NCBI GenBank assembly: GCA_008694505.1
Contig: VZDJ01000843.1
Span: forward strand, 62,001-126,000
Direction: 5' to 3'
Source: Cyanoderma ruficeps
Taxonomy: Eukaryota > Chordata > Aves > Passeriformes > Timaliidae
DNA: 64,000 nt
Of this stretch, positions 10,085 through 44,084 are shown one piece after another (the first letter of the stretch is position 1; each line of letters starts with the position of its first letter). Below the pieces are notes generated by a model that saw only the letters and a program-made list of their open reading frames with translations, ran no database searches and was not told where the DNA came from. The position numbers and the translations under genes are program-made.

Positions 10085-10523
10085 TTAGTATCGGCCAATG
10101 CCGCAGCCAAAGCAGCACCCCCGGATGAGGGAGCCGGGCCCTGCCCAGCCCAAGGAGACCAAGTGACCCTCGGGGCGGCTTTGGGTCATCCGGCACTCAG
10201 TGACCCCCGGCAGAGAGGGCAACTGGCCCCAGGCCGGTGACACTACCCACTTGCTCCCGGTGGGTCTCGCTGTGATCCCAGCACCGGACGATGCCGTCCG
10301 CAGGCGGGAGCTCCGACTCTCAGCTGTCCTCTTCTCGCTCGGAGCCCCGGCAGGGACCCGGCCCAGGTGTCCCTTTGTGTGCGGTGGGTGCGGGGCCGGC
10401 AGGGCTCCTGCCCTGGCCTTATGCTGCCACTCGCACTTTGAAGGCGTGACGGGACCGGGAATCACGGACACCCAAGGCAGCCTCATCTCCTCCTCTTCCT
10501 CCTCCACCTCCAGAGCGGGGCAC
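10085..10523 (+). promoter_or_regulatory. GC-rich upstream region of MCC long-isoform exon (copy 1)
   Basis: Marked rise in GC and CpG content just before the ATG ATG of the MCC-like exon, consistent with a CpG-island promoter and 5' UTR. From about 10437 the sequence is shared with 43865 onward. No TATA box is evident. Promoter activity is inferred from composition and position only. Confidence 0.5.
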
Positions 10524-10634
10524 ATGATGGCGGCAGCCACTGTAGCAGAGGTGAGCAGCGCCGGCAGCAGCAGCACCGACACCTCCAGCAGAGGCAAGGA
10601 GGAGAGGATGAGGAGCCTTTTCCAGACCTGCGAC
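10524..10634 (+). pseudogene. MCC: MCC long-isoform first coding exon, copy 1, cut by element E
   Basis: An open stretch of exactly 37 codons starts at tandem ATGs, has an alanine start, a serine-rich segment, and then the EERMRSLFQTCD stretch that leads into the EF-hand of long MCC isoforms. It ends where the E LTR begins (TG at 10635), so the rest of the EF-hand loop and the splice donor are missing. The second copy (43865-44084) has the donor but carries a one-base shift. MCC encodes a coiled-coil protein linked to cell-cycle and Wnt signalling control. The identity is supported by the independent short-isoform exon at 62702. Copy 1 cannot be spliced normally as it stands. Confidence 0.65.
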
Positions 10635-11424
10635 TGTAAGAAATAAAGGTTAGAGCAACTGCACAAGTTACAAATTACGGAGAAGGTTAGGGTAAAATTG
10701 TTACGAAGTTAAAAATGTACTGAGTTAAAGAGTTGATGTTTGCCATATTGTGAGAAATACCATAATATGAGTTAATGTTTGCTGAATTGTTAGAAAACCC
10801 CACTCTGTATCCCAAAAGTCTCTTTCCCTCCCCCTTAGAAATCCCCACTTACCTTGTTCCTTGTCCCACCCTCGCTCGGGCTGCGGGTCTTCTTGTAACA
10901 AGTTAACTCTTCCTCCGCCGCTGCCTACATGTCAATCAGCCTCCACACACGGTTGCTTGATACAAGGTAACTCTTCCTCCAACGCTGCCCACGTCAGTCA
11001 GCCTCCACTCCATCTAGTATGGAAAATCATGGAGACTCCCATGGGACTTTGTTGCAGACTGGACCCAATTAACACCGGAAGTCCCTAGCTGAGACGAGCC
11101 AACACAGAATCCAGACTACAAAAAGACAGCATTGAACCGGGAACACTCTAAGGTAGTTGTGGACAGTCTCCTGTACCTCGCCATGACCTAAGAGATACTA
11201 AGGAGCGAAGACACCCCTAGACTGAGAACGAGCCAACCGAGTTCCTATACTCCCGTGAGGCCGGAATTCCGGATTCTGCAGCCCCGGCAGCAGACTCCAT
11301 TGCACCTCCTCCTCAGCGTGGAGCGACAGTGGCGTAGGGCACTCCCTTGAGCCTACCCTATATAAGACCTGGAAAATAAAGGCATATAAAGGAGGAAACC
11401 TGGTCTCCTGCCCTTTTTATTACA
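10635..11424 (+). repeat. 5' LTR of ERV E
   Basis: Starts TGTAAG directly after the cut MCC exon and ends TTACA three bases before the primer site; about 790 bases. It has a TATATAA box at 11359-11365 and AATAAA at 11375-11380. No second copy exists in the window, so the 5' boundary rests on the break in the MCC exon. Confidence 0.82.
10898..11008 (+). repeat. Imperfect direct repeat in U3 of ERV E
   Basis: Two units, 10898-10946 and 10962-11008, share acaagttaactcttcctcc-like starts and a cagcctccac end. Duplicated U3 segments are often retroviral enhancers; that role is inferred here. Confidence 0.7.
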
Positions 11425-11427
11425 ACT

Positions 11428-11445
11428 TGGGGGCTTGTCCGGGAT
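11428..11445 (+). other. Primer binding site, tRNA-Pro type (ERV E)
   Basis: TGGGGGCTTGTCCGGGAT matches the complement of the tRNA-Pro 3' end with one mismatch and lies just after the LTR end. This is the usual primer of gammaretroviruses. Confidence 0.92.
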
Positions 11446-13071: not shown

Positions 13072-13344
13072 TGTAGTAAGATAGGGAATAGCCGTGCGGA
13101 AGAATATCACGCTGTACGGGAAAGATAGGGATCCTCCCCTCCCTAGTTCAGGTCACCCAATAGAGTTTTGTAATGATGTCAGTAGGTGGACCAAGCAGTG
13201 GTCACAAAAGGCCATGAAAGCAAGAAATAAACGCCATTTCACCATCCATCACATTGGTGTCAGTGAGTGATTGGCCCGAGTGGCAAGTAAGGGTAGCCAC
13301 CGTGTCTTTCCTGAACCAGGTCGCAGCTTGCAGAGAAAGCAACA
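13072..13344 (+). repeat. 5' LTR of ERV C
   Basis: TGTAGTAAG to GCAACA, 273 bases, with AATAAA near 13227. The primer site follows after two bases. Confidence 0.93.
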
Positions 13345-13346
13345 AG

Positions 13347-13364
13347 TGGTGCCGAAACCCTGGG
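13347..13364 (+). other. Primer binding site, tRNA-Phe type (ERV C)
   Basis: Begins TGGTGCCGAAACCC and matches the complement of the tRNA-Phe 3' end with a few mismatches at its end. B and D use the same primer type. Confidence 0.82.
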
Positions 13365-13482
13365 AATCGCCCCCCTACCCCTGGGCTGGTGCGACCGTGA
13401 CATCGGGAGTCACCTGGACGGGTGAAAGACGGCTGAGGCGGCAGGACCAGCCCAGCGGGGAGGACGCTCCCGTACCGGCGAG

Positions 13483-15220
13483 ATGGAGGCGCTCGCCAAG
13501 GTAGTGTTGCAACTGCATAAGCAGTGGGAAATTAAGTACCAGTCTAAAGATTTTGTCCGAGCAGTCACGAGACTGCTGCACTTGGGTGCGATAGACCGTC
13601 CGGTGGATATACTCCACTCAGAGTGCTGGGAAAAATGCACTAAGGTCTTGGCGGATGATGTGATAGCCTCAGGCATTGGGAAATATTTAAAATCTTGGGG
13701 GAGGGTGACACAAGCTTTACAAAAAGCACTGCAAGAACAAGAAACTTGGAAAGCAGCCCAGAGCTGTTTGCGAGTTATCCCGAAACTAGGAATAAGTGCA
13801 ACTACACAAACTGCAACCCAGCCTTCGGCTGCCGGCGATGCTGCTGAATCTATTGATTTGAAGAGTGAAAAAGGGGAAAAGAAAGGGGAGGTGTTGTGCT
13901 CGCAGTTTCCCAGCCCAGCTTGTGATTTGTCTGAGCAAAAAGAGAAACAAAAAAGTGATGTTGTCAGTTTGATTGAGAAAGTCGATTCAGAGGTACGTGT
14001 TGAGGATGATTCGAGTTTAGAAAAAGTTTTAGAAAGACCTCCACCCTATGCGCCACAAAATGGCACCGGTGTCCAAGAAGAAGGGGGGAGTATAGAAATT
14101 TGTCCTGCCACAAGGTCGTGTGAACAAAAGAATGAAAAGAGTTGGGAGAAAAATGAAAAGAGTTGGAGAGAAGATGAGAAAAGTCAGGGGGAGGAGGTCA
14201 CGGCGTGCTGCCAAGAGTCAGCAAGAACTATGTGTGAAGGTCATAAAGCTAATCTGGGAGTGCGTCCAAAAACACATCCAGCTAAGGCAAGGACTGCCTC
14301 AAGCAGGAGGCGGAGGGACCCCAGGGGGAGAGAAAAGCCAGTCCACAGGAGGGGGCAGACGGGGCGGAGCTGAACAAAATGGGAGCGGAGCCCGGAACTC
14401 TCGAGTCAGTCGACTTCCGGCTCTGACTCAGATAACAGCTCCTATGAGAGGCCGTACGATTGGCTCTCAATCCCGAGCGGCTCAGACACAGACTCTGAGG
14501 ATGCAGTAAGAGTAAATGCCCTCAAAAGCCTAGTCCCTTTGCCCATGTCTGTAAAAAGTCGTGCAAAAGAGCTCCCACTCACTGATTGGAAAAGAATTCA
14601 GACTGCATGTGCCAATTGGGTCCCACCGAAAATCTTAGCCTTTCCAGTCAGAATAGAAGGAGAACAAAGAACATATTCACCAGTTAATCCAATAGACATA
14701 CAGGCAATTGTGAAAGCTATTGCAGATAAAGGAATCAATTCAGCAATGGTTTCAACCCTGGTAGACAGTGTATTTGGGAAGGATGACATGCTGCCATTAG
14801 ATATTAAACAGACATGTCACATGATTTTTGATGGAGCAGGCATGATCGTTTTTAAACAAGAATGGGAGGAAAACTGCGTGCGAGAATTAGCACAGGTGGC
14901 AGGAGAACAGCACCCACTGCAAGGTTCCAGCCTGCAACGGCTCATGGGGACCGATCCTACAATGATCACCCCACAAGCACAGGCTCAAAATCTAAGAGCC
15001 CAAGAGGTTGCCACCACCACCCGTGCAGCTAGAGAGGCCATTTGCACAACATGCAGAGTGGTTGCTAAGCCAACCCCATGGTCCACCATAAAACAAAGCG
15101 AAAGCGAAAGTTTTACGAAGTTTGTGGACCGCCTCTAGGTGGCAGTAGACTCATCAAATTTACCTGCAGAGGCCAAAGGTCCAGTTGTAGCAGAATGCCT
15201 GCATCAGCAATGTAACCTAG
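13483..15220 (+). pseudogene. gag: ERV C gag, part 1
   Basis: Begins MEALAK, followed directly by the GTAGTG donor at 13501. The matrix has WEKCTKVL and LKSWGRV as in A, B and D; a PPPY late motif lies near 14040; a charged lysine- and glutamate-rich spacer follows; then the capsid with KGINSAMVSTL. One frame throughout with two nonsense codons: TGA 14371-14373 in the spacer and TAG 15136-15138 in capsid. It is interrupted at 15220 by insertion B and continues at 23048 in phase. The matrix start resembles avian leukosis virus Gag, whose first six codons are also followed by a splice donor. Confidence 0.85.
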
Positions 15221-15485
15221 TGTAGTTAGCAAAACGCTCGGAAGATCTCGGGGTGTCACAAGGAGCTCAGGGCCCCTTCTCTCCATTAGGTGTGACCAGT
15301 TATGTAACCATTGAGGAAGTGACGTGGGCGCCTCAAAGTTATTTAAGAGCATGCCTACGTAGAATAAACGCATTGCACCGTTCACCATATTGGCGTCACG
15401 TGTGCTCTGTCCGGCCAGGTTGTAAGTACGCCGTGGTCCCCTCTGGACCAGGTCGTCACTGCCTTCACTTACAGCCAAGGTAACA
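15221..15485 (+). repeat. 5' LTR of ERV B
   Basis: TGTAGTTAGC to GGTAACA, with a TATA-like tatttaag (about 15341) and AATAAA at 15363-15368. Two bases separate it from the primer site. Confidence 0.95.
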
Positions 15486-15487
15486 AG

Positions 15488-15505
15488 TGGTGCCGAAACC
15501 CGGCC
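15488..15505 (+). other. Primer binding site, tRNA-Phe type (ERV B)
   Basis: TGGTGCCGAAACCCGG matches 16 of the 18 bases complementary to the tRNA-Phe 3' end. This primer is best known from intracisternal A particles. Confidence 0.88.
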
Positions 15506-15626
15506 GGCGCTCGCCACAACACGTGGGTGTTCGAGCGCGGCGGGCGACGGGAGGCTCGCTGGAGGAGGGGACGACCGGAGCAGCAGGACTGACTTCGGTG
15601 GGGAGGACGCTCCCAGTACCGCCGGG

Positions 15627-17930
15627 ATGGAATCACTCGGCAAGGTAATTTCTGAAATTTATGAGCAGTGGGGACTCAAGCGCAGGTTTAAAGATTTCGA
15701 TGTCACAATCAGGCGACTGCTCATGTTAAATGTTATAGATCGTCCTGTGGACGTCCTGCACGTCGAATGTTGGGAGAAGTGCACAGCTGCACTCGCTCAG
15801 GACGTGTTCGCGTCCAGCACGGAAAAGCCCCTGAAAAGCTGGGGAAAAGTTATGCACTTTCTAAAATCCGCTCTGGAAGAGCAAGAAACTTGGAAGGCAG
15901 CACAACAGTGCTTGCGAGTAGTTCCCAAATTGGGAGTTGGTGCTGCAACACAGACAATGACTAACGATGATTTTGCAGAAATAAAATCTTCGTCGGAAAC
16001 TAACACCCTTCCGCGGTCGTGATCCCCGTCCCCAGCCCCCGCCACCAACCCCGAAACTAACCACAGCCCATTTCCTGAGCTTGACAGCTTCCCCTTCTCG
16101 CAAAGTGGCAAAATAAATAAAGATGAAATAAAACTTAGACCCCCACCCTATGCACCCCAAAATGGAGCCGGGGATGAACAAGAAGGGCGGGTCCAGGTAC
16201 CGATTCCCGCCACGAACATGCGCAGTCAAGATCGCGAGGACGGGGACGTGTCCTGCGGCTGGGCGGGAAAACCCAAACCCAATTACAAAGCGCGATTGCA
16301 CGCACCTCCCCACGACACTAAGAAACTCCCCAAAAAGGGGCGGAGTGGACTAGCTACTCCTGTTGCCGCCCACGACAATCTTAGAGGGCGGAGTCGAAAC
16401 AAAAACCACAGGCAGCCGGAAACCTCCGACCAGTTCACTTCCTCCCAGTCGGAGGAAGAGGCCGGCACAGACCCGGAACTAGGCCCAAATTGCCGGAGAA
16501 AGCCCAAACAGGGGAGAAAGCGTAGAAATAATAGACAACACTCCTCCTGTTCCAGTTCTAACTCTAGTTCAGATTCGGATTCAGACGATTCATACCAAAT
16601 GCCCATGATTTTCAAAAAGCTCAGTAATCAAATCCCATGGTACACACATAAGGCACAGAACACAACAAGCAACACACACGAGACAAACACCCCCACACCT
16701 TTGACAGACTGGAAGGAAGTTCAAGCCGCGCTGGCAGATTTGCCGGAAACAGCAGCGCGAATCTTCCCCGTAAAGAGACTAGACAACAACTTACCAATTT
16801 ACTCAAATTACCCAAAAGACATACAGGCCATCGCCAAGGCCATAGCTGAGAAGGGAATCAATTCCGCTATGGTCTCCACTCTAATTTACAGCCTCTTTGG
16901 CAACGATGACATGCTCCCCTTTGACATCAAGCAGACATGCCGCATGATATTCGACGGCGCTGGCATGATTGTTTCCAAACAGGAGTGGGAGGACAATTTA
17001 GAAAAAATGTAAGTAAAGGCCACAGGTGACCAACACCCACTGAGAAATACAAGCGTGCAGCGCTTGATGGGGAAGGAGCCAGGCATGATTAGCCCCCAAG
17101 CACAAGCCCAACATTTGAGAGCTTCAGAGGTCGCTGCCACAACTCGGGCTGCGAGAGAGACCATCCGCGCGGCCTGCAGAGTGGTCGCAAAGCCATCGCC
17201 CTGGACCACCATCAGGCAAGCGGAGAGCGAGCGTTTTACTACCTTAATAGATCGCCTCCAAGCAGCGGTGGATGCCTCAGACCTGCCATCTGAAGCAAAG
17301 GGGCCAGTGTTAGAGGGATGCCTGAGGCAACAATGTAATCAAACGACCAAGGAACTGCTACGATCACTGCCCCCAGGTGCCAATCTGGCCACCATCATAA
17401 AACATGTAGTCAAAGAAGAAAACCTGGCCCCAGTCCAAGCGGCGGTTGGTGCTGCAATGGCCCCACTTCCTGCAGCCGTTGGTGCAGCAGTGGCAGAGGT
17501 GATGGCCATTCAGGGTCGCGGCATTCCCAGTCAACAATCAGTTCTAGAATATTCCACATCAAGGCCAAGGGGTCCCTGTTGGATATGCGGCAAAAAGGGC
17601 CACATCTCCCGATGCTGTTCCCACAACAAGAACCAGGGAAACGGGCGGGGGAGAGGGCAGTCTGGCCGCGCACGACCCTCTCCCCGTTGGAACGGACAGC
17701 GGCCCAGCTATGTCACCCCCTCGGGAACGGAGCATCTTCCTACCCCATTGCCCCCGAGAGAATTGACCAACTTCCTAGCTCAGACCCTGCCCAACATGCA
17801 GTCACCAGCACCGCAGATGTCAATTCCTCAAGCAGTGGCACAGGACATCATGCACAGCAATACCCAAGCGCAACCCACACCGCGACCAGCTCCCAGCTCA
17901 GCGGGATCCCCAGGGTGGCCTTGGCAATAA
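15627..17930 (+). pseudogene. gag: ERV B gag, two nonsense codons
   Basis: Begins MESLGK followed by the donor GTAATT at 15645. Matrix with WEKCTAAL and LKSWGKV, PPPY late motif near 16140, serine- and arginine-rich spacer, capsid, and one CCHC knuckle (CWICGKKGHISRCC, about 17577-17618). It is in one frame with two nonsense codons: TGA 16020-16022 (CGA in copy A) and TAA 17010-17012. It overlaps pro-pol by about 290 bases and ends at 17930. The N-terminal 60 residues resemble avian leukosis virus matrix more than beta or gamma matrix. Confidence 0.9.
17636..17685 (+). promoter_or_regulatory. gag-pro -1 frameshift signal of ERV B
   Basis: GGGAAAC at 17636-17642 in gag phase (G GGA AAC), a 5-base spacer, then GGGGAGAGGG (17648-17657) perfectly paired with CCCTCTCCCC (17676-17685). 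Spacer and stem length match known -1 frameshift sites. Confidence 0.82.
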
Positions 17931-20875
17931 ACTGTGACTCGGAGCGCCCCCCTGAGGTATGGGGCGTGTGCAAGCGAGCACGCCACCCGGACGATTGTTT
18001 TGTTGCGCTCATCTTCTCGGTAGACACGGGGTCGGACGTCACCATGATCCCAGACACGCACTGGCCCCCAAGCTGGCAGTTGCAAGGCCCTGTACCGGTC
18101 CTGGGAGTTGGCAGAATCCAGAATGCACTAAAAAGTGCTGAGTTAATAACCATCACGGTCTATACTCCGGACAGAGTCGAGAAGCCGATCTCATTGCCGG
18201 TTTACATCCTGTCTAACACCCCACCACTGCTGGGACGTGATGCCCAAGCTCTCCTCGGGATGAAGATAACAAATTTACCCTTAGGGCCACTCCGGCGTAC
18301 CCGCTGTTCCCAATTAAGCTGGAAGTCAACGGACCCGGTGTACGTCGAGCAGTGGCCCATCCCCGAGCCTCGAAGGTCTGCCTTGTTACAACTGATAAAA
18401 AGAGAGCTTGAAAAAGGGCATATCGAACCATCTGTCTCACCGTGGAATACCTCAGTCTTCGTCATCCCAAAGCGCAGTGGTGAGGGCTTTCGCTTGTTAC
18501 ACGACCTGCAGGCAGTCAACAAAAAGATCAAACCCATGGGGCCTGTGCAGACCAGGTTTCCCAGCAACTCCTTTGTGCCAAAGGACCAGCCCTGCGCTGT
18601 TATCGACATCAAGGACTGTTTTTTCTCCATCCCCTTGCATGAAGACGATAAAGAGCGGTTCGCCTTTTCCGTGACATTCCCGAATGGCCAACAGCCCAAC
18701 TTGAGGTTTCAATGGACAGTGTTGCCGCAGGGCATGATCAACTCGCCTACAATTTGCCAAATAGTGGTCTGCAAAGCTCTGGATCCGGTCCGATCAGCAA
18801 ACCCCAAGGCGACGATCATCCAATACATGGATGACATTTTGATCGCTGCCCCGACATCCGAGCAGGTGGACACCATCATAACGGAAGTCTCGACCGCCCT
18901 GAAGAGTAACGGCTTTGAAGTGGCAGAAGCAAAGATAAAAAAGGGCTCTTCAGTAACCTTCTTGGGAGCAAAGATCGAAAAGTCGCATGTGTCACCACCT
19001 ACTATCAAAATCCGGCATGACGTCAAAACATTGCATGATGCCCAGCAACTGGTTGGATCCCTGCAGTGGCTCTGGAACACTGTTCTCATCCCCCCGGAGG
19101 TCATGACCCCCTTGTATGACCTCTTGAAAGGAAAGCATCCATGGGAGCCCAAGGTCATCTCGGAGGAAGCGACCAAGTCGCTCGATTACATCGAAGAGCA
19201 GCTGCCAATAGCCGCGTTAGCCAGGTGGGACCCAAACCTACCTCTAGACCTATACATACATTTTACCAAAGACGGAGGAGTGGGAGCCTTGGCCCAAGGA
19301 CCAACAGAATCAGCAAAGCCAGTCCAGTGGATAGTCCTCGGGAAGTCTCAATGGGCTTTCACTCCCGGAATAGAGTGCATCGGAAGTGTCATCATGAAAG
19401 GAAGAAAACTCGCACTGAACCATCTAGGCTCCGAACCGGCAAAAATATACCTACCTTTCCGCAAGCAGTTTCCAGCTGCATCAGTGTCGCTTACAGAGCA
19501 CCTTGCTCTAGCACTCTTTGGGTACGGGGGAGAGCTCGGCTATGCAGCAAAACCCCCTTGGACGAAGTTAATTGCCGCAATGGACATTGATCTCCCGCCA
19601 AAGGTCCTGGACAGACCACAACCTGGACCTACCGTGTTTACCGACGCATCATCAACCACCTCCACGGCAGTGGTCGTGTGGCAGGAACAGGACAAATGGC
19701 AATGTGTAAAAATGAAAGAACAATCCCTCTCGGTCCAGATGCTGGAAGCGTCAGCGGTGGCCATGGCTTGCGACCTGTTCCAGGAAAACCATCTTAACAT
19801 TGTAACCAACTCCATGTTCGTAGCCAAGCTCTGCCAGGCGATGTCCCACACAGGTATTTGCAGCTCACCCGCAGCCCTGATGATTGAAGAGGCACTGCAA
19901 GCGCGCGGAGGTACGGTAACAGTCATCCACATCAACAGTCATAGTCCCATCAAAGGATACTTCCAGCTTGGGAACGATAAAGCAGACGCAGCCGCCAAAA
20001 ATCTGTGGACTTTACAGAGCGCCCAACAATTGCACGACTCACTTCACATAGGAGCGAAAGCGCTAGCAAAGAAATGCGACATCTCCATGACCGATGCAAA
20101 ATATATTGTGGCCACATGCCCACACTGTAAGAAATCCCCTTTGTGGTCAGCAGGGGTAAATCCCAGAGGTTTGAAACCATCGGAGATCTGGCAAACAGAC
20201 TTCACCCTATGCCAGCTGCTGAAGCCACAGGCGTGGCTCGCGGTCACCGTTGATACATTCAGTGGTGTCATCGTGGGGACCCAACACGCCAAAGCCAATT
20301 CAAAAGCAACCATACAGCATTGGCTGACAGCCATGGCTTGGCTCAGAGTTCCCAAACAAATAAAGACGGATAACGGAACCCACTTCACATCCAGGGCGGT
20401 TCAGGAGTTCGCCAACAAATGGGACATTGTTTTGAAGCAAGGCATTCCATATAACAGTACCGGACAAGCCATAGTAGAAAGGGCAAACCAAACCCTGAAA
20501 ACCAAACTAGAAACCTTAGCAAAGGCAGAAGGGTTCTCGGGAGCCATTCCCCCGTCGGAGCAGCCACGGCTGCTCGCGACAGCCATGCTCCCCCTGAATC
20601 AGTTTGTCAGGGGGGACCAGAGCCAAGCCCCCTCACAAAAACATTGGACAGTAAAGGCCTCGCAGGAGGGTCTGCCGGTTAGCGTCAGGAATGAGCTGGG
20701 GGAGTGGGAAACTGGGTGGAAACTCATGGTAACGGGCAGAGAGTACGCAGCGGTGCAGAAAGATGGAGATATCAAGTGGTGCCCTTTAAAATCAATAAAA
20801 CCTGTCCTACCTGATAAAACTAACAAATGCTCTGAGTTTCTCTCCGCAGGTTCTCTCCCACAAAACACTAACTAA
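17642..20875 (+). CDS. pol: ERV B fused pro-pol (protease, reverse transcriptase, RNase H, integrase)
   Basis: One uninterrupted frame, -1 to gag. Protease DTGS at 18023-18034; LLGRD; reverse transcriptase from about 18330 with LPQGM and YMDD at 18824-18835; RNase H with FTDASS near 19640, the conserved glutamate, and asparagine at 19808-19810 where A, C and D have the catalytic aspartate of TDSMF; integrase with an HX3H...CPHC domain (20029-20130), IWQTDF, KTDNGT and QAIVERAN as the D,D-35-E core, and a GEWETGW C-terminal domain. In A, C and D pol is -1 to pro; B lacks five bases near 18310-18320 (caattaagctgg against caattaaattaagctgg in A), which joins the two frames. The frame is coding-length, but RNase H is probably inactive. 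Confidence 0.9.
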   Translation, partial: RAGERAVWPRTTLSPLERTAAQLCHPLGNGASSYPIAPERIDQLPSSDPAQHAVTSTADVNSSSSGTGHHAQQYPSATHTATSSQLSGIPRVALAINCDSERPPEVWGVCKRARHPDDCFVALIFSVDTGSDVTMIPDTHWPPSWQLQGPVPVLGVGRIQNALKSAELITITVYTPDRVEKPISLPVYILSNTPPLLGRDAQALLGMKITNLPLGPLRRTRCSQLSWKSTDPVYVEQWPIPEPRRSALLQLIKRELEKGHIEPSVSPWNTSVFVIPKRSGEGFRLLHDLQAVNKKIKPMGPVQTRFPSNSFVPKDQPCAVIDIKDCFFSIPLHEDDKERFAFSVTFPNGQQPNLRFQWTVLPQGMINSPTICQIVVCKALDPVRSANPKATIIQYMDDILIAAPTSEQVDTIITEVSTALKSNGFEVAEAKIKKGSSVTFLGAKIEKSHVSPPTIKIRHDVKTLHDAQQLVGSLQWLWNTVLIPPEVMTPLYDLLKGKHPWEPKVISEEATKSLDYIEEQLPIAALARWDPNLPLDLYIHFTKDGGVGALAQGPTESAKPVQWIVLGKSQWAFTPGIECIGSVIMKGRKLALNHLGSEPAKIYLPFRKQFPAASVSLTEHLALALFGYGGELGYAAKPPWTKLIAAMDIDLPPKVLDRPQPGPTVFTDASSTTSTAVVVWQEQDKWQCVKMKEQSLSVQMLEASAVAMACDLFQENHLNIVTNSMFVAKLCQAMSHTGICSSPAALMIEEALQARGGTVTVIHINSHSPIKGYFQLGNDKADAAAKNLWTLQSAQQLHDSLHIGAKALAKKCDISMTDAKYIVATCPHCKKSPLWSAGVNPRGLKPSEIWQTDFTLCQLLKPQAWLAVTVDTFSGVIVGTQHAKANSKATIQHWLTAMAWLRVPKQIKTDNGTHFTSRAVQEFANKWDIVLKQGIPYNSTGQAIVERANQTLKTKLETLAKAEGFSGAIPPSEQPRLLATAMLPLNQFVRGDQSQAPSQKHWTVKASQEGLPVSVRNELGEWETGWKLMVTGREYAAVQKDGDIKWCPLKSIKPVLPDKTNKCSEFLSAGSLPQNTN
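18271..18277 (+). promoter_or_regulatory. Relict pro-pol slippery heptamer of ERV B
   Basis: AAATTTA is kept in pro phase. Because of the 5-base loss downstream, a shift here would leave the pol frame, so the site is no longer useful. Confidence 0.65.
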
Positions 20876-22650: not shown

Positions 22651-22763
22651 GAGTTGTAAGACCGCTACGGTCCATAACCACTAACCGCAATGTTTATGCA
22701 AATTACTAACAGATACTAACACAGTTCCTGTTATTGCGTTTTAGTACACGTTTGTCCGTTCAT

Positions 22764-22777
22764 GGAGAGGGGGGAAA
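22764..22777 (+). other. Polypurine tract of ERV B
   Basis: Purine run GGAGAGGGGGGAAA directly before the 3' LTR. Confidence 0.88.
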
Positions 22778-23042: not shown

Positions 23043-23047
23043 CCTAG

Positions 23048-29453: not shown

Positions 29454-29611
29454 AAAGCGCTCACGCACAGACATCCATCAACCCATTCTGAGCGCCCCCC
29501 GACACGCGGTGTGCATGTGCTCCGGGTATCAGGAGTCTCGCTGGAGGAGGAGACGATCGAAGCAGCTGGTCCTGACTTCGACGGGGAGGACGCTCCCAGT
29601 ACCGCCGAGGA

Positions 29612-31854: not shown

Positions 31855-32246
31855 ACTGCGATTCACAGCGCCCCCCGGAGGTATGGGGAGTGTGTAGACG
31901 GGCACGCCACCCTGATGATTGTTTTGTCGCACTCGTCTTTATGGTGGACACGGGATCTGATGTGACGGTGATCCCAGACACGCATTGGCCCCCGAGTTGG
32001 CAGTTACAAGGCCCAGTGCCGGTGCTAGGGGTCGGCGGAGTCCAGAACGCCTTGAAAAGTGCAGAACTAATATCCATCACGGTGTACACCCTGGATGGAG
32101 TCGAGAAACCGGTTTCAGTGCATATCTATGTCCTTTCCAACACCCCGCCCCTGCTGGGACAAGATGCTCAAGCTCTCCTTGGCATGAAGGTAACAAATTT
32201 ACCCATAGGGCCACTCCGGCGTACCCGTCGCTCCCAATTAAGTTAA
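31560..32246 (+). CDS. pro: ERV D pro (aspartic protease)
   Basis: Frame -1 to gag, open to TAA 32244-32246. Contains VDTGSDVT, a flap region and LLGQDAQ in place of LLGRDAQ. Pol is -1 to this frame via AAATTTA at 32195-32201. The protease itself shows no break, but gag upstream has two frameshifts. Confidence 0.7.
   Translation, partial: RAGEGAGWPCATLSPMEYPAAELCHTLGDRAPSNATTSQGAYQFCSTDHVQHSNPDTTSISTHGTHGNAGPEAGRYTGTEASASNPEHSGIPRVALAIDCDSQRPPEVWGVCRRARHPDDCFVALVFMVDTGSDVTVIPDTHWPPSWQLQGPVPVLGVGGVQNALKSAELISITVYTLDGVEKPVSVHIYVLSNTPPLLGQDAQALLGMKVTNLPIGPLRRTRRSQLS
32195..32201 (+). promoter_or_regulatory. pro-pol -1 slippery heptamer of ERV D
   Basis: AAATTTA in pro phase; the -1 frame is open into reverse transcriptase. 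Confidence 0.68.
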
Positions 32247-34746: not shown

Positions 34747-34770
34747 CAAACTCTGAGTGTCTCCCCACAG

Positions 34771-36572
34771 GTTTCTCCTTGCAGGTCATCAGCCGAGCGT
34801 CCAGTCCAACTCTGGCTCTTCTGCTTGCTGCTAGCAGTGTTGTCTTACCCCAGCGACAGCCACCATCCCTATCGGCCCCACGTGTGGACATTCAAGAACT
34901 TCATCTCCGGCGCTGTGATAGGCCAATTGGAAACCAACACCCCAGCATGGACAGTGCGGTTGGCCGACATCTTCACAAACGACCGGTCGGGTAAAACCTC
35001 TCGTGACATCGCGGTACAGACATATTGGTGTCCAAGCCATAACCCCGCGAAAAAACAGTGCACTCGACCAGGTTATTGGTTTTGCGGGCACTGGGGGTGT
35101 GAGACCATCGTAACCGGCTACCGCCGATGGAGACCCCCCAGAGAGGATGTGTTCTTAAAGGTGACAGGTTGGCCTCATGACTGTGTCTTTGGGACCAAGT
35201 ATCAAGGCAGGAAAATAGGGACATGTACACACCTTACAATTACGGTCCTACAGCCACAGGACCCTTCATGGGCGATGGGCAGATTATGGTCGGTGTACCA
35301 ACATGATGATGCACCCCTTATCAAGGACCCTGACCTAGGCACAGTGATACAAATTATTAGGGCTCCAACACATAAAAGACACATAGCAGTAGGCCCGAAC
35401 GAACTAGCCACCTTCATGAAAAACACACCGTCCGCGACCGTCTCCCCAGAAGGAGAAAGGTCGTCAGTTACTGCTACAGTGTTAAAGCCAGCACGTGTCA
35501 TTCCCGCACCAAAAGACCAAGCACAAAACTTGTTCACCAGAATGTTATATGCCGCCTTTCTATCTCTCAATGCCTTACAGCCAAACCTTACAGAATCCTG
35601 TTGGCTCTGCTACGACTCCAGACCATCCTTTTACGAAGGAATAGGCTCCAACAGGACGTTCCAGTACTCACAAGAAGCAAGTCCCAAGCAGTGTAGATGG
35701 GACACCCCGAGCAAAGGCATCACATTAGGGATCATCTCAGGACATGGGGTCTGTATAGGAAATAAAAGCACAAAGCCCCAGAACACAGAGTTATGCAAGT
35801 CCCCTGTCAAATTAGACAAACAAAAGGAGTGGGCCATTCCAGCGCCCGGAAATATGTGGCCATGCCACACCACCGGTCTTACCCTTGTGTCGCTATCAAA
35901 CGCCTTGATGAGACTAACGATTTTTGTACCCAAGTTGTTGTCATCCCCAGGATCCTGTATCACACAGACGACGAAGTCGTGGCGCACTTTGAGACCAACG
36001 CACACCGAACGAAAAGAGAGATAGCCACAGCCGTCAGTTTGGCACTTCTCCTGACCCTAGGAGGAACCGGCGCAGCCACAGGCATCACTTTGTTGGCCAC
36101 ACAGAAACAAGGCTTAGAGCAGTTGCAGAGAACCATAGATGAGGGCCTCCTCCAAATACATAGAAACATCCTGAAACTAGAGGAATCCCTGTTTCCTCTG
36201 TCGGAAATGGTCCTCCAAAACAGGCGAGGCCTAGATCTCCTCTTAATGCAGCAAGGAGGTCTGTGTGCAGCCCTAAAGGAAGAATGCTGCACGTATGTAA
36301 ACCATTCAGGCCCAATTAGGCAGTCCATGACGGAGCTAAAAGAAAGGCTCGAGCGCCGCAGTTACGAGCTGCAGTGACAAAATTGGTTTAATTCCCTGTT
36401 CAATCAGCGTCCCTGGATTGCTCCTGTGATTACGGCCCTAATAGGTCCCGTTATCGTCATAATTTTGGCCCTCCTGTTTGGCCCTTGTATGCTTAACAAA
36501 ATCGCCCAGTTTGTCAAAGCCCGCTTGAGCAAAATTGAAATTATGGTCTTGCAGCAAAGACAGCTGACCTAA
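34771..36572 (+). pseudogene. env: ERV D env, one frameshift and one nonsense codon
   Basis: Follows an acceptor (gtctccccacag, ending 34770) in phase with the gag leader 29612-29629. A hydrophobic signal lies about 34815-34850. The surface subunit has YWFCGHWGCET and CWLC and is open to about 35880, where a frameshift occurs. A good furin site RTKR lies near 36011-36022, followed by a GGTGAATG fusion peptide, [19 protein letters not shown] and an anchor ending FGPCMLNK. TGA 36375-36377 interrupts the membrane-proximal part. Of the three env genes of this family in the window, D best keeps the cleavage site. Confidence 0.88.
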
Positions 36573-36690
36573 AATGGCTGAGAGACTAATCCACTCGCTC
36601 ATTAGCATCTCAATTTGTCCCCGCGTTACTAACTGTCGTTCACACAGTTCACAGTTCTAACGTTCATACTAATCCAGTGTAATAGTTCAT

Positions 36691-36704
36691 GGAGAGGGGG
36701 GAAA
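36691..36704 (+). other. Polypurine tract of ERV D
   Basis: GGAGAGGGGGGAAA directly before the 3' LTR. Confidence 0.88.
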
Positions 36705-36966
36705 CGTAGTTAGCCCAAACACCGGCCGGAAGATCTCGCGCTGTCACGAGGAGATAGGGCCCCTCCTCTCCATAGAGTTGCTCAGTTATGTAACACCAAG
36801 GAAGTGACGCGAGCACCCCGAAGCTATAAAAAGGGGCGCCCGCAGGAAATAAACGCATTCCACCATTCATCATATTGGTGTGAGGAGTGGTTTGTCCAGC
36901 CAGGTTGTAAGTTCGCTGTGGTCTCCATCTAAACCAGGTCGTCACCGCCAGCCGCCGCTGGCGACA
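36705..36966 (+). repeat. 3' LTR of ERV D
   Basis: 262 bases, about 4 differences from the 5' LTR (1.5 percent). Its first base is C where T is expected, so the terminal TG is mutated. Followed by the TSD cacccc. Confidence 0.95.
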
Positions 36967-36972
36967 CACCCC

Positions 36973-38246
36973 CTTTCTTACCACTACCTCCTCCCCCAGC
37001 TGACCTCATACTAGGAGCCTCTCCTACTACTACTCCGTCCCCATCTGTTCCTGTGATGTCACCGGATTTATCCTTCTCCGGAACTAATCCTTTCCATTCA
37101 TCGAGCACTCCTATTGGAACCCCCGTTGACAGCCCTAGGCCACCTTTGCCGTCCACCGTTTCTTCACCTCCTCCCAACTGGGAATTAACGGCATCAACCT
37201 CAAATAGTGAGAGCGCGCCCATTCCGGAAACCTCTGAAGGGCCATATCAAAATACTAGATCAAAAACTAAACTATTTCCATTAAGAGAAGTACCTATGGG
37301 TGGGGCAGTAGGCGGAATTGGTTTCGTAAACGCCCCATTAACTGCCTCTGAAGTAAGGAGTTTTAAGAAGGAATTGGGAAACTTAGTTGAAAACCCTATA
37401 GGAATCTCAAACCAAATCGATCAATTTCTGGGCCCGAGTATATACACGTGGAGTGAAATGAACTCCATTATGAATATCCTGTTTAACCCGGAAGAGGTGA
37501 GGTTGATTTGAACAGCCGGTGTCCGCATTTGGGAGAGGGAAAACCGGACGGGGCCTCCAGGGGAACAAAAATTACCAACAGCCGATCCTGAGTGGGATCC
37601 AAATAGAGAGGAAGATAGAAGAAATATGGGAGAATATAGAAGTCTCATGGTTAGCGGTATTAGAGAATCAGTCCCGCGAAATAATAACACAAAATTGGCA
37701 TTTGACGGGGCGCAAGAGAAGGATGAATCCCTGGCAGCTTGGTTGGACAGGCTTAGGAGGAATTTTCAACAGTATTTGAGCATTGACCCGGATAGCTTGG
37801 AGGGACAGGGATTTCTAAAACTCCAATTTGTAACGAAATCATGGCCGGACATAAGGCGAAAATTAGAAAGACTGGAAGATTGGCAGGAAAAGAGCGTGAA
37901 TGAATTGTTAAGGGAAGCGTGAAAGGTGTACCTACGTAGAGATGAAGAGAAAACGAGGACCAAAACCAAGATGATGGTTGCAGTTGCCAGGGAAAGTGTA
38001 AGAGATTTAGTAAATCCCCCAAAAGAAGGAGGCGAAAAGCCTTCAGGAAGAAAATCAAAAACTACAGACCCCCGACCGTGGGTTGTAACACCGCGAGAAG
38101 GAGAAATAAGGAGATGCTTTTATTGTGGTCAAGTGGGACACCTAAGACGGGAATGTAAGAAGGAGGCTTTCGATAAGGCTATAGTGAAGGAGCAAGAAGC
38201 TCTCGAGAGAGCTCTTAGAGGAGAGGCAGATTCTAATGGTGACTAG
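36973..38246 (+). pseudogene. gag: ERV E gag, part 3 (proline-rich end, capsid, nucleocapsid)
   Basis: The frame continues after insertion D through more proline-rich sequence, a capsid with LREVPMGG near its start, a major-homology-like stretch (ESLAAWLDRLRRNF), and one CCHC knuckle (CFYCGQVGHLRREC, about 38116-38157). Two in-frame nonsense codons interrupt it: TGA at 37509-37511 and TGA at 37920-37922. There is no frameshift inside this part. The domain order is that of gammaretroviral Gag. It ends at TAG 38244-38246, and pro-pol follows in the same frame. Confidence 0.82.
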
Positions 38247-38249
38247 GGG
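38244..38249 (+). promoter_or_regulatory. Gag-pol amber codon with TAG-G context (ERV E)
   Basis: The gag frame ends in TAG followed by G, and the protease frame continues in the same phase. Gammaretroviruses make Gag-Pol by reading through such an amber codon with help from a downstream pseudoknot. I did not verify a pseudoknot. Confidence 0.7.
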
Positions 38250-41200
38250 TGTCATGGGCTCTTTCCTTTAGGGGACCCTGAAAACCATCCTGAAGAGCCC
38301 ATAGTAAAATTGATAGTGGGTCCCCTCTACCAAGAGTTAGAATTCTTAGTAGACACTGGTGCGGAAAAATCAAGCCTAAAACAACTCCCGTTAGGCACAT
38401 GCGTAGGGAAGAAATTACGTGACGTACAGGGAGCTGAGGGAAAGCCTTTTAAAGCCTCAGTCATAAATAATGTAGAAATTAGGGGCAATTCAAGGAAATG
38501 TACAACCGACTTGATTTATTTGCCCAACATAGATTCCAACCTACTTGGAAGAGATTTGCAGGTGACTTTAAACATTGGGGTCATACCCAGAGAGGGCAAA
38601 ATGATAGTACAGCTAATGAAGTTAACGGCAGAGAACCTAGGGGAAATTAATCCAGAGGTCTGGGCCGAGGCCGGGAAATACAGGTTTCTAAACATCCCCC
38701 CTATAAAGATCAGAATGCAGAAAGGGATAGCCCCTATAAGGGTCAAACAGTACCCCCTCTCAGTAGAAGCAAGAAAAGGACTTTCATCGATTATTACCCA
38801 CTTGTTAGCAGCAGAAATCCTAGAGCCCTGTTTGTCACCCCACAATACCCCCATCTTGGCGGTCAAGAAAAGGGAGAATAAATACCGACTGGTCCAGGAC
38901 CTGAGAGAAGTTAATAAAAGAACCATCTCTAATTATCCTCTCGTGGCTAACCCTCATAATTTGTTAAGTCAAATCCATCGAGAACAGGGGTGGTTCACGG
39001 TGATAGATCTGAAAGATGCTTTCTGGGCCTGTCCGTTGGCTCCAGAAAGTAGGGACTGGTTCGCCTTTGAATGGGAATGCCCGGAGACTCAGAAGACAAC
39101 AGCTAAGATGGACACGCCTCCCGCAAGGGTTTTCGGAAAGTCCAAATTTATTCGGGAAGGCCTTAGAGGAATTGATACAACAATTCGCCCTGAAAGATAA
39201 TTGTCAAATTTTGCAGTATGTAGATGACCTGTTAATCACTGGAGAGACTCAGATAGAAGTAAAACAAGTCAGCATCAATGTTCTGAATTTTTTGGGGGAA
39301 AAGGGTCTCAGGGTTTCTAGAGAAAAATTACAATTTGTAGAACAGCAAGTCACTTATCTAGGCCACATAATCGGGAAAGGGTATAAGAAGCTAACGCCGG
39401 AAAGAATTTTGGGAATAATAGCTATTCCGGCCCCAACATCAAAAAGGGACGTGAGAAAATTGTTAGGACTATTCGGATACTGTCGAATGTGGTTAGATAA
39501 GTATTTGCAGAAAGTTAAGTTCCTTTATGAGAAACTAACCCAACCAGAACCAGTCATGCGGACCGAGGGAGATGAAAAACAGTTAGAGAGTCTAAAGACC
39601 GAGCTAACGACAGCCCCAGTCCTGGGACTCCCGGACCTCAGGAAAAAGTTTGACCTATTTATAAATGCTGAGGAAGGGGTAGCGTATGGGGTGCTCACTC
39701 AGGAATGGGGGGATAAGAGGAAACCCATCGCTTTTCTTTCCAAACTCTTAGACCCAGTTGCTAGGGGGTGGCCCACCTGCCTCCAAGCAATAGCAGCCAC
39801 TGCATTACTCCTCGAAGAAGCAAAGAGGTTGACCTTACAGGGAGAGATTATAATACATACTCCACATGGTTTAAAAACAGTGTTAAGCCAGAAAGCCCAT
39901 CAATGGTTAACAGACCCTAGACTCTTACAGTACGAAGTGATGTTAACCACTTCGGAAAATTTAAAGTGGATCACTTCAAAAGTCATGAACCCCGCTCAGT
40001 TTCTGTCAGGAGAACCTTCCCCAGATCTAGAACATAGCTGTATAGAAATTATAGATCTACAAACAAAAATCAGAGAGGATCTCGAGGATACCCCATTACC
40101 TGATGGGAGAATTTTGTTTACTGATGGGTCTTCCTGAGTAGTGGAAGGGAAAAGACTATCGGGCTATGCAGTGGTGGAAGAGGTCGGGGAAAGTGATCTG
40201 CAAGTAATCGATAAAGGAAAACTCCCAGCAAACTGGATTGGATTTATTGAAAAAAGATAAAGGCACTATTTACACTGATTCACGTTATGCTTATGGGGTA
40301 GCCCATACATTTGGTAAAATATGGGAGAAGAGAGGATATTTAAATTCAAAAGGGAGAGACCTAATACACAAACAGTTAGTAAAAGAAGTGTTAGATTCCT
40401 TGCAGAAACCCGAAGAGATAGCTATAGTGCATATCAAAGGCCATCAGAAAGGGGAGTTGCTGGAGATAAGGGGAAACCGAACTGCAGACTTGGCTGCCAA
40501 ACTAGCCGCCCCGAATTCTGAAGAACCAGTAAAACTTTTCACCTTGAACAAACCCTCAGAGGAGAAGGTGGAGAATCTAATTTTTAGCCCTACAGAAATA
40601 GAGCTAATAAAGGAGATGGAAATACACCAGGGGAGCAAGGGGCAGTGGGTGACACCAGACGGGAGGAAATTTTTGAACAAAGCCATAGCCAGAGAAGTGT
40701 TAAAGGAAATACATAACTTGACCCATTGGGGTGCCCAAGGGCTATGTGATCACTTTCTGAGAGAGTACATCTGTGTTGGAGCTTATAGCTTAGCAAAAGC
40801 TATCACGGAAGGGTGCCCAATTTGCCAGAAGGTAAACCAGAGGGTTATGAAGAAGGTTAAGACAGGAGGAAGGCCAATAGCACTAAGACCATTTCAGAAC
40901 GTGCAGATTGACTTTACAGAAATGCCCTCAGTACAAGGATATAAACACTTACTAGTAATCGTGGACCATCTGACCCATTGGGTTGAAGCCTTTCCTACCA
41001 AAAAGGAAACGGCTCAAACAGTGATAAAAATATTGTTAGAGCATATTGTTCCACGCTGTGGGCTAATAAATAACATAGACTCAGACTGTGGCCCACACTT
41101 CACTGCGCAAGTGTTACAAAAACTGGTACAAGCTCTGGGAATCAAATGGCGTTTGCACACCCCTTGGCATCCACAAAGCTCGGGAAGGGTAGAGAGGATG

Positions 41201-41776
41201 AATAAGACCCTCAAAAATACACTGACAAAATTAATCCAAGAGACAGGCATGAATTGGCTTAAATGCCTGCCTTTGGCTTTATTGAGAATCCGAGTATGAC
41301 CCAGATCGGATATCAAAGTGTCGCCGTATGAAATGTTATTTGGACTCCCCTTCCTGTTGACCCCATATAGTTCAGCGGATTATTTGGACGGGAAGGCGGA
41401 AGTCCAAAATTACATAATGATCATTGGGAATACATTGGCAGAACTCAGAAAAAAGGGGCATCTTCCTCAAACCTCTCCCCTTGATGTGGATGTTCACCAT
41501 ATAAAACCAGGGGACTGGGTGCTGATTAAATCCTGGAACACTCCCTCACTAACCCCTAAATATGAAGGTCCATTTCAGGTCTTACTTACCACCCAGATTG
41601 CAATAAGAACTGAAGAAAAGGGTTGGACCCATGTTTCCTGGGTAAAGGGGCCCTTGCCTTCTCCAAGTGATCCATCGAACTCGAACCCAACCACCACTAC
41701 TTCTTCCAACTGGACTGCAGAGAGAGACCCAGAGACATTAAAGATAACCCTCAGAAAGAGAGCCACCGCGCCTTAA
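38247..41776 (+). pseudogene. pol: ERV E pro-pol, broken
   Basis: Protease with DTGA at 38352-38363 and LLGRDL; reverse transcriptase with LPQGF and the YVDD box (39217-39228); RNase H with FTDGSS, TDSRYA and a GNRTADLAAK end; integrase with an HHCC domain ending CPICQK, IDFTEMP, a DCGPHF box, the glutamate in GRVERMN, and a C-terminal SH3-like part. YVDD and the integrase pattern are gammaretroviral. Breaks: a frameshift near 39085 in reverse transcriptase, TGA at 40136-40138 followed by a frameshift before 40238 in RNase H, and TGA at 41297-41299 in integrase. The 280 bases between pol and env hold no frame, whereas gammaretroviral env usually overlaps pol. No intact enzyme is encoded. Confidence 0.88.
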
Positions 41777-42057
41777 GATCCTGAAGTACAGAACTGATGT
41801 TGCAGAGTGTAAACAGATAATAGAGGTCATTGTGTGATAGAGTTTCATAATACTAAGTTGTTCTAAAGTTTTTTTGTGGGAAATACGTTGTTTCTGAAGT
41901 TTAGTGAGGCATACTTCTCTTACAGGACATTAACATAAGGCGACAAAAAGGTGTAAAGAGTAGGAGTGAGTGAAAAGATGCTGCAGAAGGGCCAAATAAT
42001 ACATTCTAGGTACCACCATATAAAACCAAGAGGCAAGACTGGGCAGGATCGAGAAAA

Positions 42058-43865
42058 ATGGTCTGTACCGGACTCTTGGGAAAGCTGGTGATCCTTATGC
42101 TATTCAGGTATAGCTGGGCCCCTCCACTGACGAGGAGGGGAGGGATAAGTGTTCCCACACTAAAACCTGAAGCCTGGATGAAAGACGTAGTAGGTACTTG
42201 TTCAAAATGTTATCAACCCATCTATGATGGAGAATACCCTCAAGCGTTGATTACAGTTCACACTCACGTAAATCCTACATGTTTTGATAAAACCCAACTT
42301 TCCATCTGCCAGGAGGATGGGAAGAAATATTGGATAACTAAAAATACTGCCAATTATAGGCAGTGCCTCTTAGGGGAATGTCCTGTCAGAGAGTGGTTCT
42401 GTTTCGAAAAGTTGAATAATCCAGATGGAGTTGCTGATTTGGTAAAAGAAAAGCCATTGAAAGTAGAAAGAAATAATATAGAAGGACCCCTCGGGAAAAA
42501 CCTGTTCATAGATCTAGTTGAGAAAATTAGTCGAGAACTAAACATTACAAACTGCTGGATTTGTGGTAGCACTCAAATGTCAGATATTTGGCCGTGGGAG
42601 GGAACAAGCTTAACCCCCGTAGATATATTAAGATGGAAGCTTATGCAACAGGAACCCATAGAGGAAGGAGAAAGACGGGTAGAACAATGGGACCTAAAAT
42701 CACCCATTGTGGGAGAGGAATGCATACAGCGATCTGGAGCAATGTACAAAGTTTTTGTGAGAAAAATGGTCTGTAAAAGATATCTGATAGTAAAGAGCGA
42801 ATCAAAAAGATGGATACCTCGGAAACCCGAAGTATACTGGACCATTGATAAACAAGAGACAAAATGTATCTATCATGAAGGGTACAGGTTGTACCAATGT
42901 GCCAAGGAAAATTCCAATCCATTCTGGGGAATTAAGGAAATATCTAAATATTGGGAAAATCCTACAGACACCCAAAGCGAGTTATTCTGGAAAGCTCCAA
43001 AACTCCTGTTTTGGATCTGTGGAGATAAAGCGTACACTCACCTTCCAGAGGATTGGTCCGGTAGTTGTACAATTGGGATTATCAAACCGGCTTTCTTTTT
43101 ACTTACCAGGGAATCTGGGAACAATCTTGGAATTCCCCTCTATGATACCCTTAAGAAAAATAATGAAAGAAAGAAAAGATCTGTAATCGATATGGGTAGT
43201 TCTCAGAAGTAGGGAAGGAAGGTCTGGACCCCTGAGGAGATAATAAAAACATACGGACCAGCTACATGGACGCAGGACGGGTCCTGGGGGTATCAAACCC
43301 CAGTTTACATGACAAACTAAATAATTAGCCTCCAGGCCGTACTAGAGGTAATATCAAACAAAACTGCGCTAGCCTTGGACCTCATCAGTGACCAATTAAC
43401 CCAAACCCAAGCAGTCATTTATCAGATTAGATTGGCAGTAGATTACTTATTAGCAAATGAGGGCAGCATTTGCGGAAAGTTCAATTCATCAGAATGCTGC
43501 CTAGAGATAGATGATAAAAGTGAAGTCATTAAAAACATCTCAAAGGAAATTCGAAAAATCACATATGTAGGTACCCAAAAATGGACCCCTCTTGCGTCCT
43601 CAGATTGGTGGAAAAATTTTTGGTCTTTTCAAGGGGCTGGGTGGAGAAAAATTGCTTTTATCATAGGATGTTCGCTAGCTAGTCTCCTTCTGTTCCCTTG
43701 TTTAATTCCATGTCTCATCCGAATAGTAACTTCAGCTGTTCAGTCTAGTCTTCAGAGCCAAGAAAAACCAAACTCTATAATGAAATTAGAAGTCCAAAAC
43801 ACCGAACTTAGCTCAGCCGAAAAGATGGTTAATCAATATTATGACCTAAAAGGGAGTTCCTCAGT
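42058..43865 (+). pseudogene. env: ERV E env, gamma-type, two nonsense codons
   Basis: Starts with ATG and a hydrophobic signal-like segment. The surface subunit contains CWIC (42553-42564), the CXXC motif that isomerises the disulfide to the transmembrane subunit. A furin site RKKR lies at 43168-43179. In-frame stops follow: TAG 43210-43212 and TAA 43318-43320. The transmembrane subunit has a cysteine motif at 43471-43500 with seven residues between the first cysteine and the CC pair, not the usual six, then a tryptophan-rich region and a membrane anchor (about 43650-43740). The frame runs into MCC exon DNA at about 43865, so the natural C-terminus is uncertain. Function in family: receptor binding and membrane fusion; this copy is not translatable in full. 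Confidence 0.85.
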
Positions 43866-44084
43866 ATTGAAGGCGCAACGGGACCGGGAATCACGGACAC
43901 CCAAGGCAGCCTCATCTCCTCCTCTTCCTCCTCCTCCTCCAGAGTGGGGCGCATGATGGCGGCAGCCACTGTAGCAGAGGTGAGCAGCGCCGGCAGCAGC
44001 AGCACCCGACACCTCCAGCAGGGGCAAGGAGGAGAGGATGAGGCACCTTTTCCAGACCTGCGACGGCGATGGCTTCATCAGCAG
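43866..44084 (+). pseudogene. MCC: MCC long-isoform first exon, copy 2, with splice donor
   Basis: 5' UTR and coding start shared with copy 1 (about 8 substitutions and one indel over roughly 200 bases by eye). Tandem ATG at 43953 and 43956, serine-rich segment, then the EF-hand start and a donor CAG|GTAGCG after 44084, where human MCC also has an exon boundary shortly after the EF-hand loop. An extra C near 43.01 in the serine run (AGCACCCGAC) shifts the frame before the EF-hand, and the calcium loop reads CDGDGFISR, shorter by two residues than the mammalian DGDGDG form as I remember it. Either a decayed copy or one with sequencing error. Upstream DNA is ERV E env rather than a promoter. 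Confidence 0.62.

What the first reader, a model, noticed from the sequence alone, without database searches (positions are those of the whole stretch)
10437..44084. MCC long-isoform first exon is cut by a retrovirus and present in two diverged copies
The sequence 10437-10634 recurs at 43865-44065 with about 4 percent difference. Copy 1 has the GC-rich upstream region and an open frame but ends at the E LTR; copy 2 has the splice donor but is shifted by one base and follows E env. Neither could make the long isoform as it stands. This is far longer than a retroviral target duplication, so a duplication, recombination or a Z/W or haplotype mixture must be involved.
Basis: partly seen in the sequence, partly recalled or inferred. 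Interest (0 to 1): 0.85.

Follow-up and report, generated by a model that had tools for sequence, protein, structure and literature searches.

The report
Botched retrovirus insertion duplicated a dead exon
A retrovirus inserted into an already decayed copy of a songbird gene's first exon, probably with only one of its two ends joined normally, leaving 198 bases of the exon duplicated on either side; the event is well preserved but of a known kind.

Summary
10438-10634 recurs at 43867-44064 with 8 substitutions and one inserted base. It is MCC exon 1. Copy 1 ends exactly where the 5' LTR of gammaretrovirus-like provirus E begins (10635). Copy 2 runs through that point to a splice donor (GT 44085) but is joined on its 5' side to E's env, near the end of env. 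E has no 3' LTR in the window. Younger proviruses B (containing C) and D are nested in E.
Best reading (0.6): aberrant one-ended integration. Integrase joined the 5' LTR end; the truncated env end was joined by host repair 198 bp upstream, duplicating the DNA between. HIV vectors (PMC5041404) and human HML-2 6p25.2 (PMC5488345) show the same anatomy.
That the virus broke a working exon is not supported: both copies share T23R and E25K, seen in none of 94 MCC proteins scored, so decay predates the duplication. This also argues against a mixture with an intact Z copy. An oscine-type residue (T18) points to a songbird-specific MCC relic; W linkage is untested. Misassembly is not excluded without reads. 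New member of a known kind.

The parts
10386..10437 (+). native MCC 5' region upstream of copy 1 (GC-rich; matches the N-terminal extension of Prinia P0133 and, from 10404, Heliangelus P0093/P0097)
   Evidence: tblastn
10438..10634 (+). copy 1 of MCC exon 1 (5' part, then ATG 10524 and 37 codons), cut by the E 5' LTR
10635..11424 (+). 5' LTR of provirus E (TG...CA), followed by a tRNA-Pro-like primer binding site near 11428 (label recalled); no second copy of this LTR in the window
13072..28899 (+). provirus B nested in E (LTRs 13072-13344 / 28627-28899, 6 of 273 differ; flanks GTCCGC / GTCTGC); contains provirus C
15221..23042 (+). provirus C nested in B (LTRs 6 of 265 differ; CCTAG flank repeat)
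29171..36966 (+). provirus D nested in E (LTRs: 3 of 261 differ in the stretch compared, plus the first base; flanks CACCCC / CACCCC)
36967..43866 (+). rest of provirus E: open pieces of gag (Gag_p30), pol (RVP, RVT_1, RNase H, rve, MLVIN_C) and env (TM part 43321-43866), truncated near the end of env; no 3' LTR
43867..44064 (+). copy 2 of the duplicated exon segment, joined on its 5' side to env; extra base at 44005
44065..44084 (+). remainder of MCC exon 1 present only with copy 2 (GDGFIS and the first two bases of the next codon), then donor GT at 44085; one DG of the EF-hand loop missing

Best explanation
Provirus E is a fossil of a one-ended, aberrant retroviral integration into an already decayed copy of MCC exon 1 in a songbird. 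The U3 end of the 5' LTR was joined to the exon at 10634|10635 in the normal way. The other end of the viral DNA had lost its 3' LTR and probably the last codons of env, and was joined by host repair 198 bp upstream of the integration point, so that 198 bp of host DNA now lies on both sides. Later, provirus B (with C inside it) and provirus D inserted into E. Shown: the anatomy, the order of nesting, the unusual residues shared by both copies, the absence of a 3' LTR in the window. Inferred: that the duplication arose in the integration event itself, that host end-joining did it, and that the locus is a non-functional extra copy of MCC (W-linked, germline-restricted or other).
For: Copy 1 stops exactly at the LTR's TG, and copy 2 carries the uninterrupted sequence across that point. 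The other viral end is truncated: env passes into exon sequence near its end, and no second E LTR was found, only matches of 12-25 bp at E 0.5-6 apart from the self match and an internal repeat. The duplicated segment is bounded on one side by the integration point and on the other by the truncated viral end; the 738 bp upstream of copy 1 and the 636 bp downstream of copy 2 have no counterpart in the window beyond matches of 12-28 bp. PMC5041404 (section 10 read) states that in most cases aberrant proviruses have one normal end, an often truncated other end, and most commonly a duplication of host DNA at that end, usually much larger than 5 bp, up to hundreds or thousands of bp. PMC5488345 (sections 12-13 read) gives a germline case, HML-2 6p25.2: one LTR, truncated, 111-bp duplication. 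Decay before insertion: T23R and E25K in both copies against 94 of 94 T and 93 of 94 E (one D) in the MCC proteins scored.
Against: No reads or second genome were available, so the env|exon junction may be an assembly join. Copies differ by 4.1% (95% interval 1.8-8.0%), not significantly more than the pooled nested LTR pairs (15 of 799, Fisher p 0.11; with D's first base 16 of 800, p 0.12), so the expected greater age of the duplication is shown by nesting only. The same anatomy could come from a normal provirus that later lost its 3' end. Copy 2 also lacks 6 bp of the DG repeat beside the integration point, which this model does not predict.
Confidence: 0.6

Rival explanations
1. E integrated normally, with two LTRs and a short target duplication. 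Later an illegitimate exchange with an empty allele or sister chromatid, or a deletion between two pre-existing duplicated exon regions, removed the 3' LTR and joined env to a second copy of the exon.
For: Gives the same final anatomy. PMC5488345 discusses a duplication-then-deletion alternative for 6p25.2.
Against: Needs two events, one of them illegitimate. Upstream of the shared segment the env side and the copy 1 side show no similarity; whether there was microhomology at the join cannot be told, because E's own continuation is unknown. No trace of a duplication beyond the segment that ends at the integration point.
Confidence: 0.2
2. The tandem arrangement is an assembly artefact: a contig with copy 1 and E was joined to a different haplotype or paralogue beginning at copy 2.
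For: The window has one likely assembly scar, a single N at 4513 at the edge of another provirus where LTR and leader sequence is missing. ERV-rich DNA misassembles readily (general knowledge). The two copies are 4% apart.
Against: No N at either junction. Copy 2 is not an intact MCC exon: it shares T23R and E25K with copy 1, which contradicts a mixture of a decayed copy with the functional one. As alleles, E would have had to stay polymorphic while B, C and D inserted and their LTR pairs diverged by 1-2%.
Confidence: 0.15
3. The exon was the host's working MCC exon until E inserted; the shared unusual residues are normal for this species.
For: Copy 1's frame is open over its 37 codons. The host species and its own MCC were not identified.
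Against: T23 and E25 are fixed or nearly so in the bird, reptile and mammal MCC proteins found, oscine songbirds included; none of 95 has SSRG, GKEERM or SSTGKE. Codon 31 appears to have changed separately in each copy.
Confidence: 0.12

Closest known systems
Aberrant one-ended integrations of HIV-1 and Rous sarcoma virus vectors (PMC5041404; the RSV work is cited only through it)
   Same: One normal LTR junction, the other viral end often truncated and joined to host DNA, host duplication of hundreds of bp or more
   Different: Those were caused in culture by drugs or mutations; this one is in a genome, old, and built over by later proviruses. The cause of the one-ended event here is unknown
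HERV-K (HML-2) 6p25.2 truncated provirus and other HML-2 loci with long target duplications (PMC5488345)
   Same: Endogenous; one LTR; truncated at the far end; 111-bp duplication (7p21.2 has 250 bp; 206 and 450 bp at other loci are putative)
   Different: HML-2 in primates, short remnant and nearly identical duplicates; here a gammaretrovirus-like element in a bird that keeps gag, pol and env pieces, with duplicates 4% apart and nested proviruses
Z-to-W transposed genes of songbirds (PMC7692361) and pseudogene fragments on the germline-restricted chromosome (PMC10387091)
   Same: Decayed genomic copies of genes in songbirds, which the oscine-type residue T18 and the ERV density would fit
   Different: MCC does not occur in the main text of either paper (supplements not searched); linkage of this window was not tested

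Membership tests
Aberrant one-ended retroviral integration with long host duplication | one normal LTR-host junction | tested here: met
   LTR begins TG at 10635, directly after exon sequence that continues unbroken in copy 2; processing by integrase itself is inferred
Aberrant one-ended retroviral integration with long host duplication | other viral end truncated or abnormal | tested here: met
   env passes into exon sequence near its end; no second E LTR in the window
Aberrant one-ended retroviral integration with long host duplication | host DNA duplicated by far more than 4-6 bp at the abnormal end | tested here: met
   197/198 bp
Aberrant one-ended retroviral integration with long host duplication | duplication made in the integration event itself | not testable with these tools
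   needs related species or populations
Conventional two-LTR provirus | two LTRs flanked by 4-6 bp target repeats | tested here: not met
   E has one LTR in the window
Class I (gammaretrovirus-like) ERV, for E | Gag p30, MLV-type integrase C-terminus, TLV-type env TM | tested here: met
   PF02093 E 1.3e-19 and PF18697 E 1.3e-7, above their cut-offs; PF00429 E 2.5e-4, 20.3 bits, just under its cut-off of 22.5; env relatives
Functional MCC long-isoform exon 1 | open frame to the donor with conserved residues and the DGDGDG loop | tested here: not met
   copy 1 has no donor; copy 2 is frameshifted and has DGDG only; both have T23R and E25K
Z/W mixture with an intact Z copy | one copy equals the normal MCC exon | tested here: not met
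W-linked or germline-restricted relic | female-only or germline-only linkage | not testable with these tools
   no reads by sex or tissue

The most novel reading that the evidence does not exclude
The break in E near the very end of env, next to where the polypurine tract and 3' LTR should begin, would be the mark of plus-strand synthesis that stopped before copying the 3' LTR, leaving viral DNA with one complete end for integrase and a frayed end for host repair. One-LTR proviruses with long duplications would then be a distinct germline class with a predictable breakpoint. Lacking a partner LTR they could not collapse to a solo LTR and would persist as platforms for nested insertions, as here, on a songbird-specific MCC relic.
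Probability: 0.2. Interest if true: 0.55.

Novelty: new member of a known kind. Interest (0 to 1): 0.35.

Why it matters
In the papers seen here, long host duplications at retroviral insertions come from drug-treated or mutant HIV and RSV vectors and from some human HML-2 loci. A bird element of another retroviral class with the same anatomy, and with younger proviruses fixing the order of events, suggests that such events reach germlines more widely. It also warns that a long flanking repeat around an ERV need not mean misassembly or segmental duplication, and that an ERV inside an exon need not have killed the gene: here the exon seems to have decayed first.

Tried and rejected
Degenerate 3' LTR of E in the window: none; apart from the self match and an internal repeat of the LTR, only matches of 12-25 bp at E 0.5-6. 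Relatives of the env piece in IMG/VR: 9 stretches matched a pattern, none confirmed, so the DNA position of E's polypurine tract could not be fixed. Rfam and tRNA scans: nothing. Host genome search: not answered in five tries of one request. Papers linking MCC to bird Z/W or to songbird relics: searches gave no papers; one search listed 10 of 12, and the three of these that I searched for the word MCC had no occurrence (PMC7599627, PMC8662655, PMC7757076); one search listed 6 papers, none holding 'MCC gene'. These are limited full-text searches of an open-licence library, not proof of absence. A search for nested passerine W proviruses gave no papers. Varadarajan 2013 and Oh 2006 are not held and are cited only through PMC5041404.

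Considered and rejected: transduction of a host exon by the virus (copy 2 runs through the donor into further DNA, so it is genomic); processed pseudogene (donor and upstream DNA present); use of the copies' divergence as a clock (5 of 8 differences are CpG-type by inspection of the table, and the excess over the nested LTR pairs is not significant).
Full report
Observation. A self-comparison finds 10438-10634 and 43867-44064 at 95.5% identity, E 6e-86; the alignment has 8 substitutions and one base inserted in copy 2, placed at 44005. Copy 1 ends at 10634 and the next base begins an LTR (TG, 10635). Copy 2 reads without interruption through the same point, GAC|GGC, to AG|GT at 44084|44085.

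Identity of the exon. A search with the exon's 44 residues gave 95 proteins with E up to 1 among 105 candidates; by the names given, all but one (an unnamed product of Coccothraustes) are colorectal mutant cancer protein or MCC, and the best full-coverage hit is Camarhynchus parvulus at 85%. By tblastn at E 0.01 all 95 match both copies and nothing else in the window, so no other MCC exon was detected. P0133 (Prinia) and P0093/P0097 (two isoforms of Heliangelus), which carry an extended N terminus, also match upstream of copy 1, from 10386 and 10404; P0148 (a bat) matches from 10491. So copy 1 is attached to native upstream DNA, copy 2 to the native end of the exon and its donor.

The virus. 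E has a 790-bp 5' LTR (10635-11424), a proline-tRNA-like primer site (label recalled) and open pieces of gag, pol and env with Gag_p30, MLVIN_C and a weak TLV_coat match. Provirus B (containing C) and provirus D lie inside E; flanking repeats GTCCGC/GTCTGC and CACCCC/CACCCC indicate that the E pieces on either side were contiguous. E's LTR has no second copy in the window.

The right junction. The env piece 43321-43866 matches env-like proteins of birds and other vertebrates (Hirundo rustica P0001 and P0002, 64% over 97-99%; syncytin-2 in the PDB, E 1.7e-7). After the aligned Tyr-x-x-Leu position E has 6 residues before the exon sequence begins. Counting by eye the nine relatives printed, P0001 has 13, P0002 7, P0005 12, P0006, P0007 and P0009 11 each, P0011 8, P0010 36 and P0014 only 2. 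So E's env is cut about 1 to 7 residues before the end in seven of nine, 30 before it in one and past it in one; the tails are variable, so this is approximate. The env frame runs on into copy 2 and stops at 43956. E therefore lost the sequence beyond, including the 3' LTR. The distance to the polypurine tract could not be measured.

The exon was already decayed. Of 95 MCC proteins, 94 matched the anchor used for counting; P0150 was dropped because it has ERMK in place of ERMR (its T23 and E25 are the usual ones). T23 is T in 94 of 94; E25 is E in 93 and D in 1; R31 is R in 93 and S in 1. The loop DGDGDG is in 95 of 95. Both copies have R at 23 and K at 25. At 31 copy 1 has AGC and copy 2 CAC, each one step from an inferred CGC. 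Copy 2 also has DGDG only and the frameshift. None of 95 has SSRG, GKEERM or SSTGKE. The simplest history is loss of constraint, then duplication with E, then separate decay. A6T is shared too, but that stretch is variable among MCCs and I lean on it less. Copy 2 keeps a downstream in-frame ATG (44038) reading MRHLFQTCDGDGFISR to the donor, so a shortened start is conceivable, but with a damaged EF-hand loop and no native promoter next to it.

Host. The residue before DTSST (or its variants) is T in 12 of 95 sequences and S in the other 83; all 12 are songbirds by the species names (their placement as oscines is recalled). T18 in both the window's copy 1 and these songbirds, with env relatives in songbirds, places the window in a songbird. 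At least 38 of 64 kb is ERV (E with its nested proviruses, plus 1 to about 4722). That fits published W chromosomes, with TE density above 55% against below 10% genome-wide (PMC8310711, abstract and passages), but proves nothing about linkage. MCC lies on Z in birds by recall, not by a call. T18 argues, on one residue, for a copy that arose after the oscine split rather than an ancient gametolog. Z-to-W transpositions in songbirds are documented (PMC7692361: first part, passages and one section read), and pseudogene fragments on the germline-restricted chromosome too (PMC10387091, passages).

Mechanism. PMC5041404 (passages and section 10 read) reports that when one viral end is not inserted by integrase, host machinery can join it, the end is often truncated, and most commonly host DNA is duplicated there, by up to hundreds or thousands of bp. 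PMC5488345 (abstract, passages, sections 12 and 13 read) describes HML-2 loci with 111 and 250 bp duplications, putative ones of 206 and 450 bp, and the one-LTR truncated provirus at 6p25.2; its authors caution that some may be pseudo-duplications made by rearrangement. The anatomy here meets each feature of the one-ended class that could be tested.

Timing. LTR pairs differ at 6 of 273 (B), 6 of 265 (C) and 3 of 261 (D, whose first base differs as well); the exon copies at 8 of 197. The order E before B and D follows from nesting. Divergence alone does not establish it (Fisher p 0.11), and CpG-type changes make up 5 of 8 differences between the copies (by inspection) and 11 of 15 in the three LTR pairs.

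Limits. No reads, no bird genomes and no answer from the genome search. An assembly artefact keeps 0.15. A single N at 4513, at the edge of another provirus, suggests that the assembly is not free of joins.

Noticed in passing
4513: The window's only ambiguous base (N) lies between a minus-strand provirus's LTR (4514-4722) and its internal part (1-4512), where part of the LTR and the leader are missing relative to provirus C: probably an assembly or gap-filling scar.
   Followed up: partly
1-4722: Minus-strand relative of provirus C (82% over 4.5 kb), with one long gag frame of 736 residues (Gag_p24, Gag_p24_C, and Retro_M below its cut-off).
   Followed up: partly
54147-59913: Direct repeats of 321 bp, 98.1% identical (6 differences), 5.1 kb apart, with inverted partial copies near by; they do not begin with TG, and three open frames tried near by (56831-57283, 57514-58062, 60648-61430) had no Pfam match. 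Nature unknown.
   Followed up: partly
49260-49733: Open frame with a CCHC zinc knuckle in a GC-rich stretch, perhaps another gag remnant.
   Followed up: no
43321-43956: E's env tail frame runs into the exon copy, giving an env end fused to 29 host-encoded residues. The preceding open stretch in the same frame ends at a stop at 43212; that stretch had no Pfam match.
   Followed up: partly
10438-10634 and 43867-44064: 5 of 8 differences between the copies are CpG-type by inspection, found in both copies, which would fit germline methylation of this former CpG-rich exon after the duplication.
   Followed up: partly
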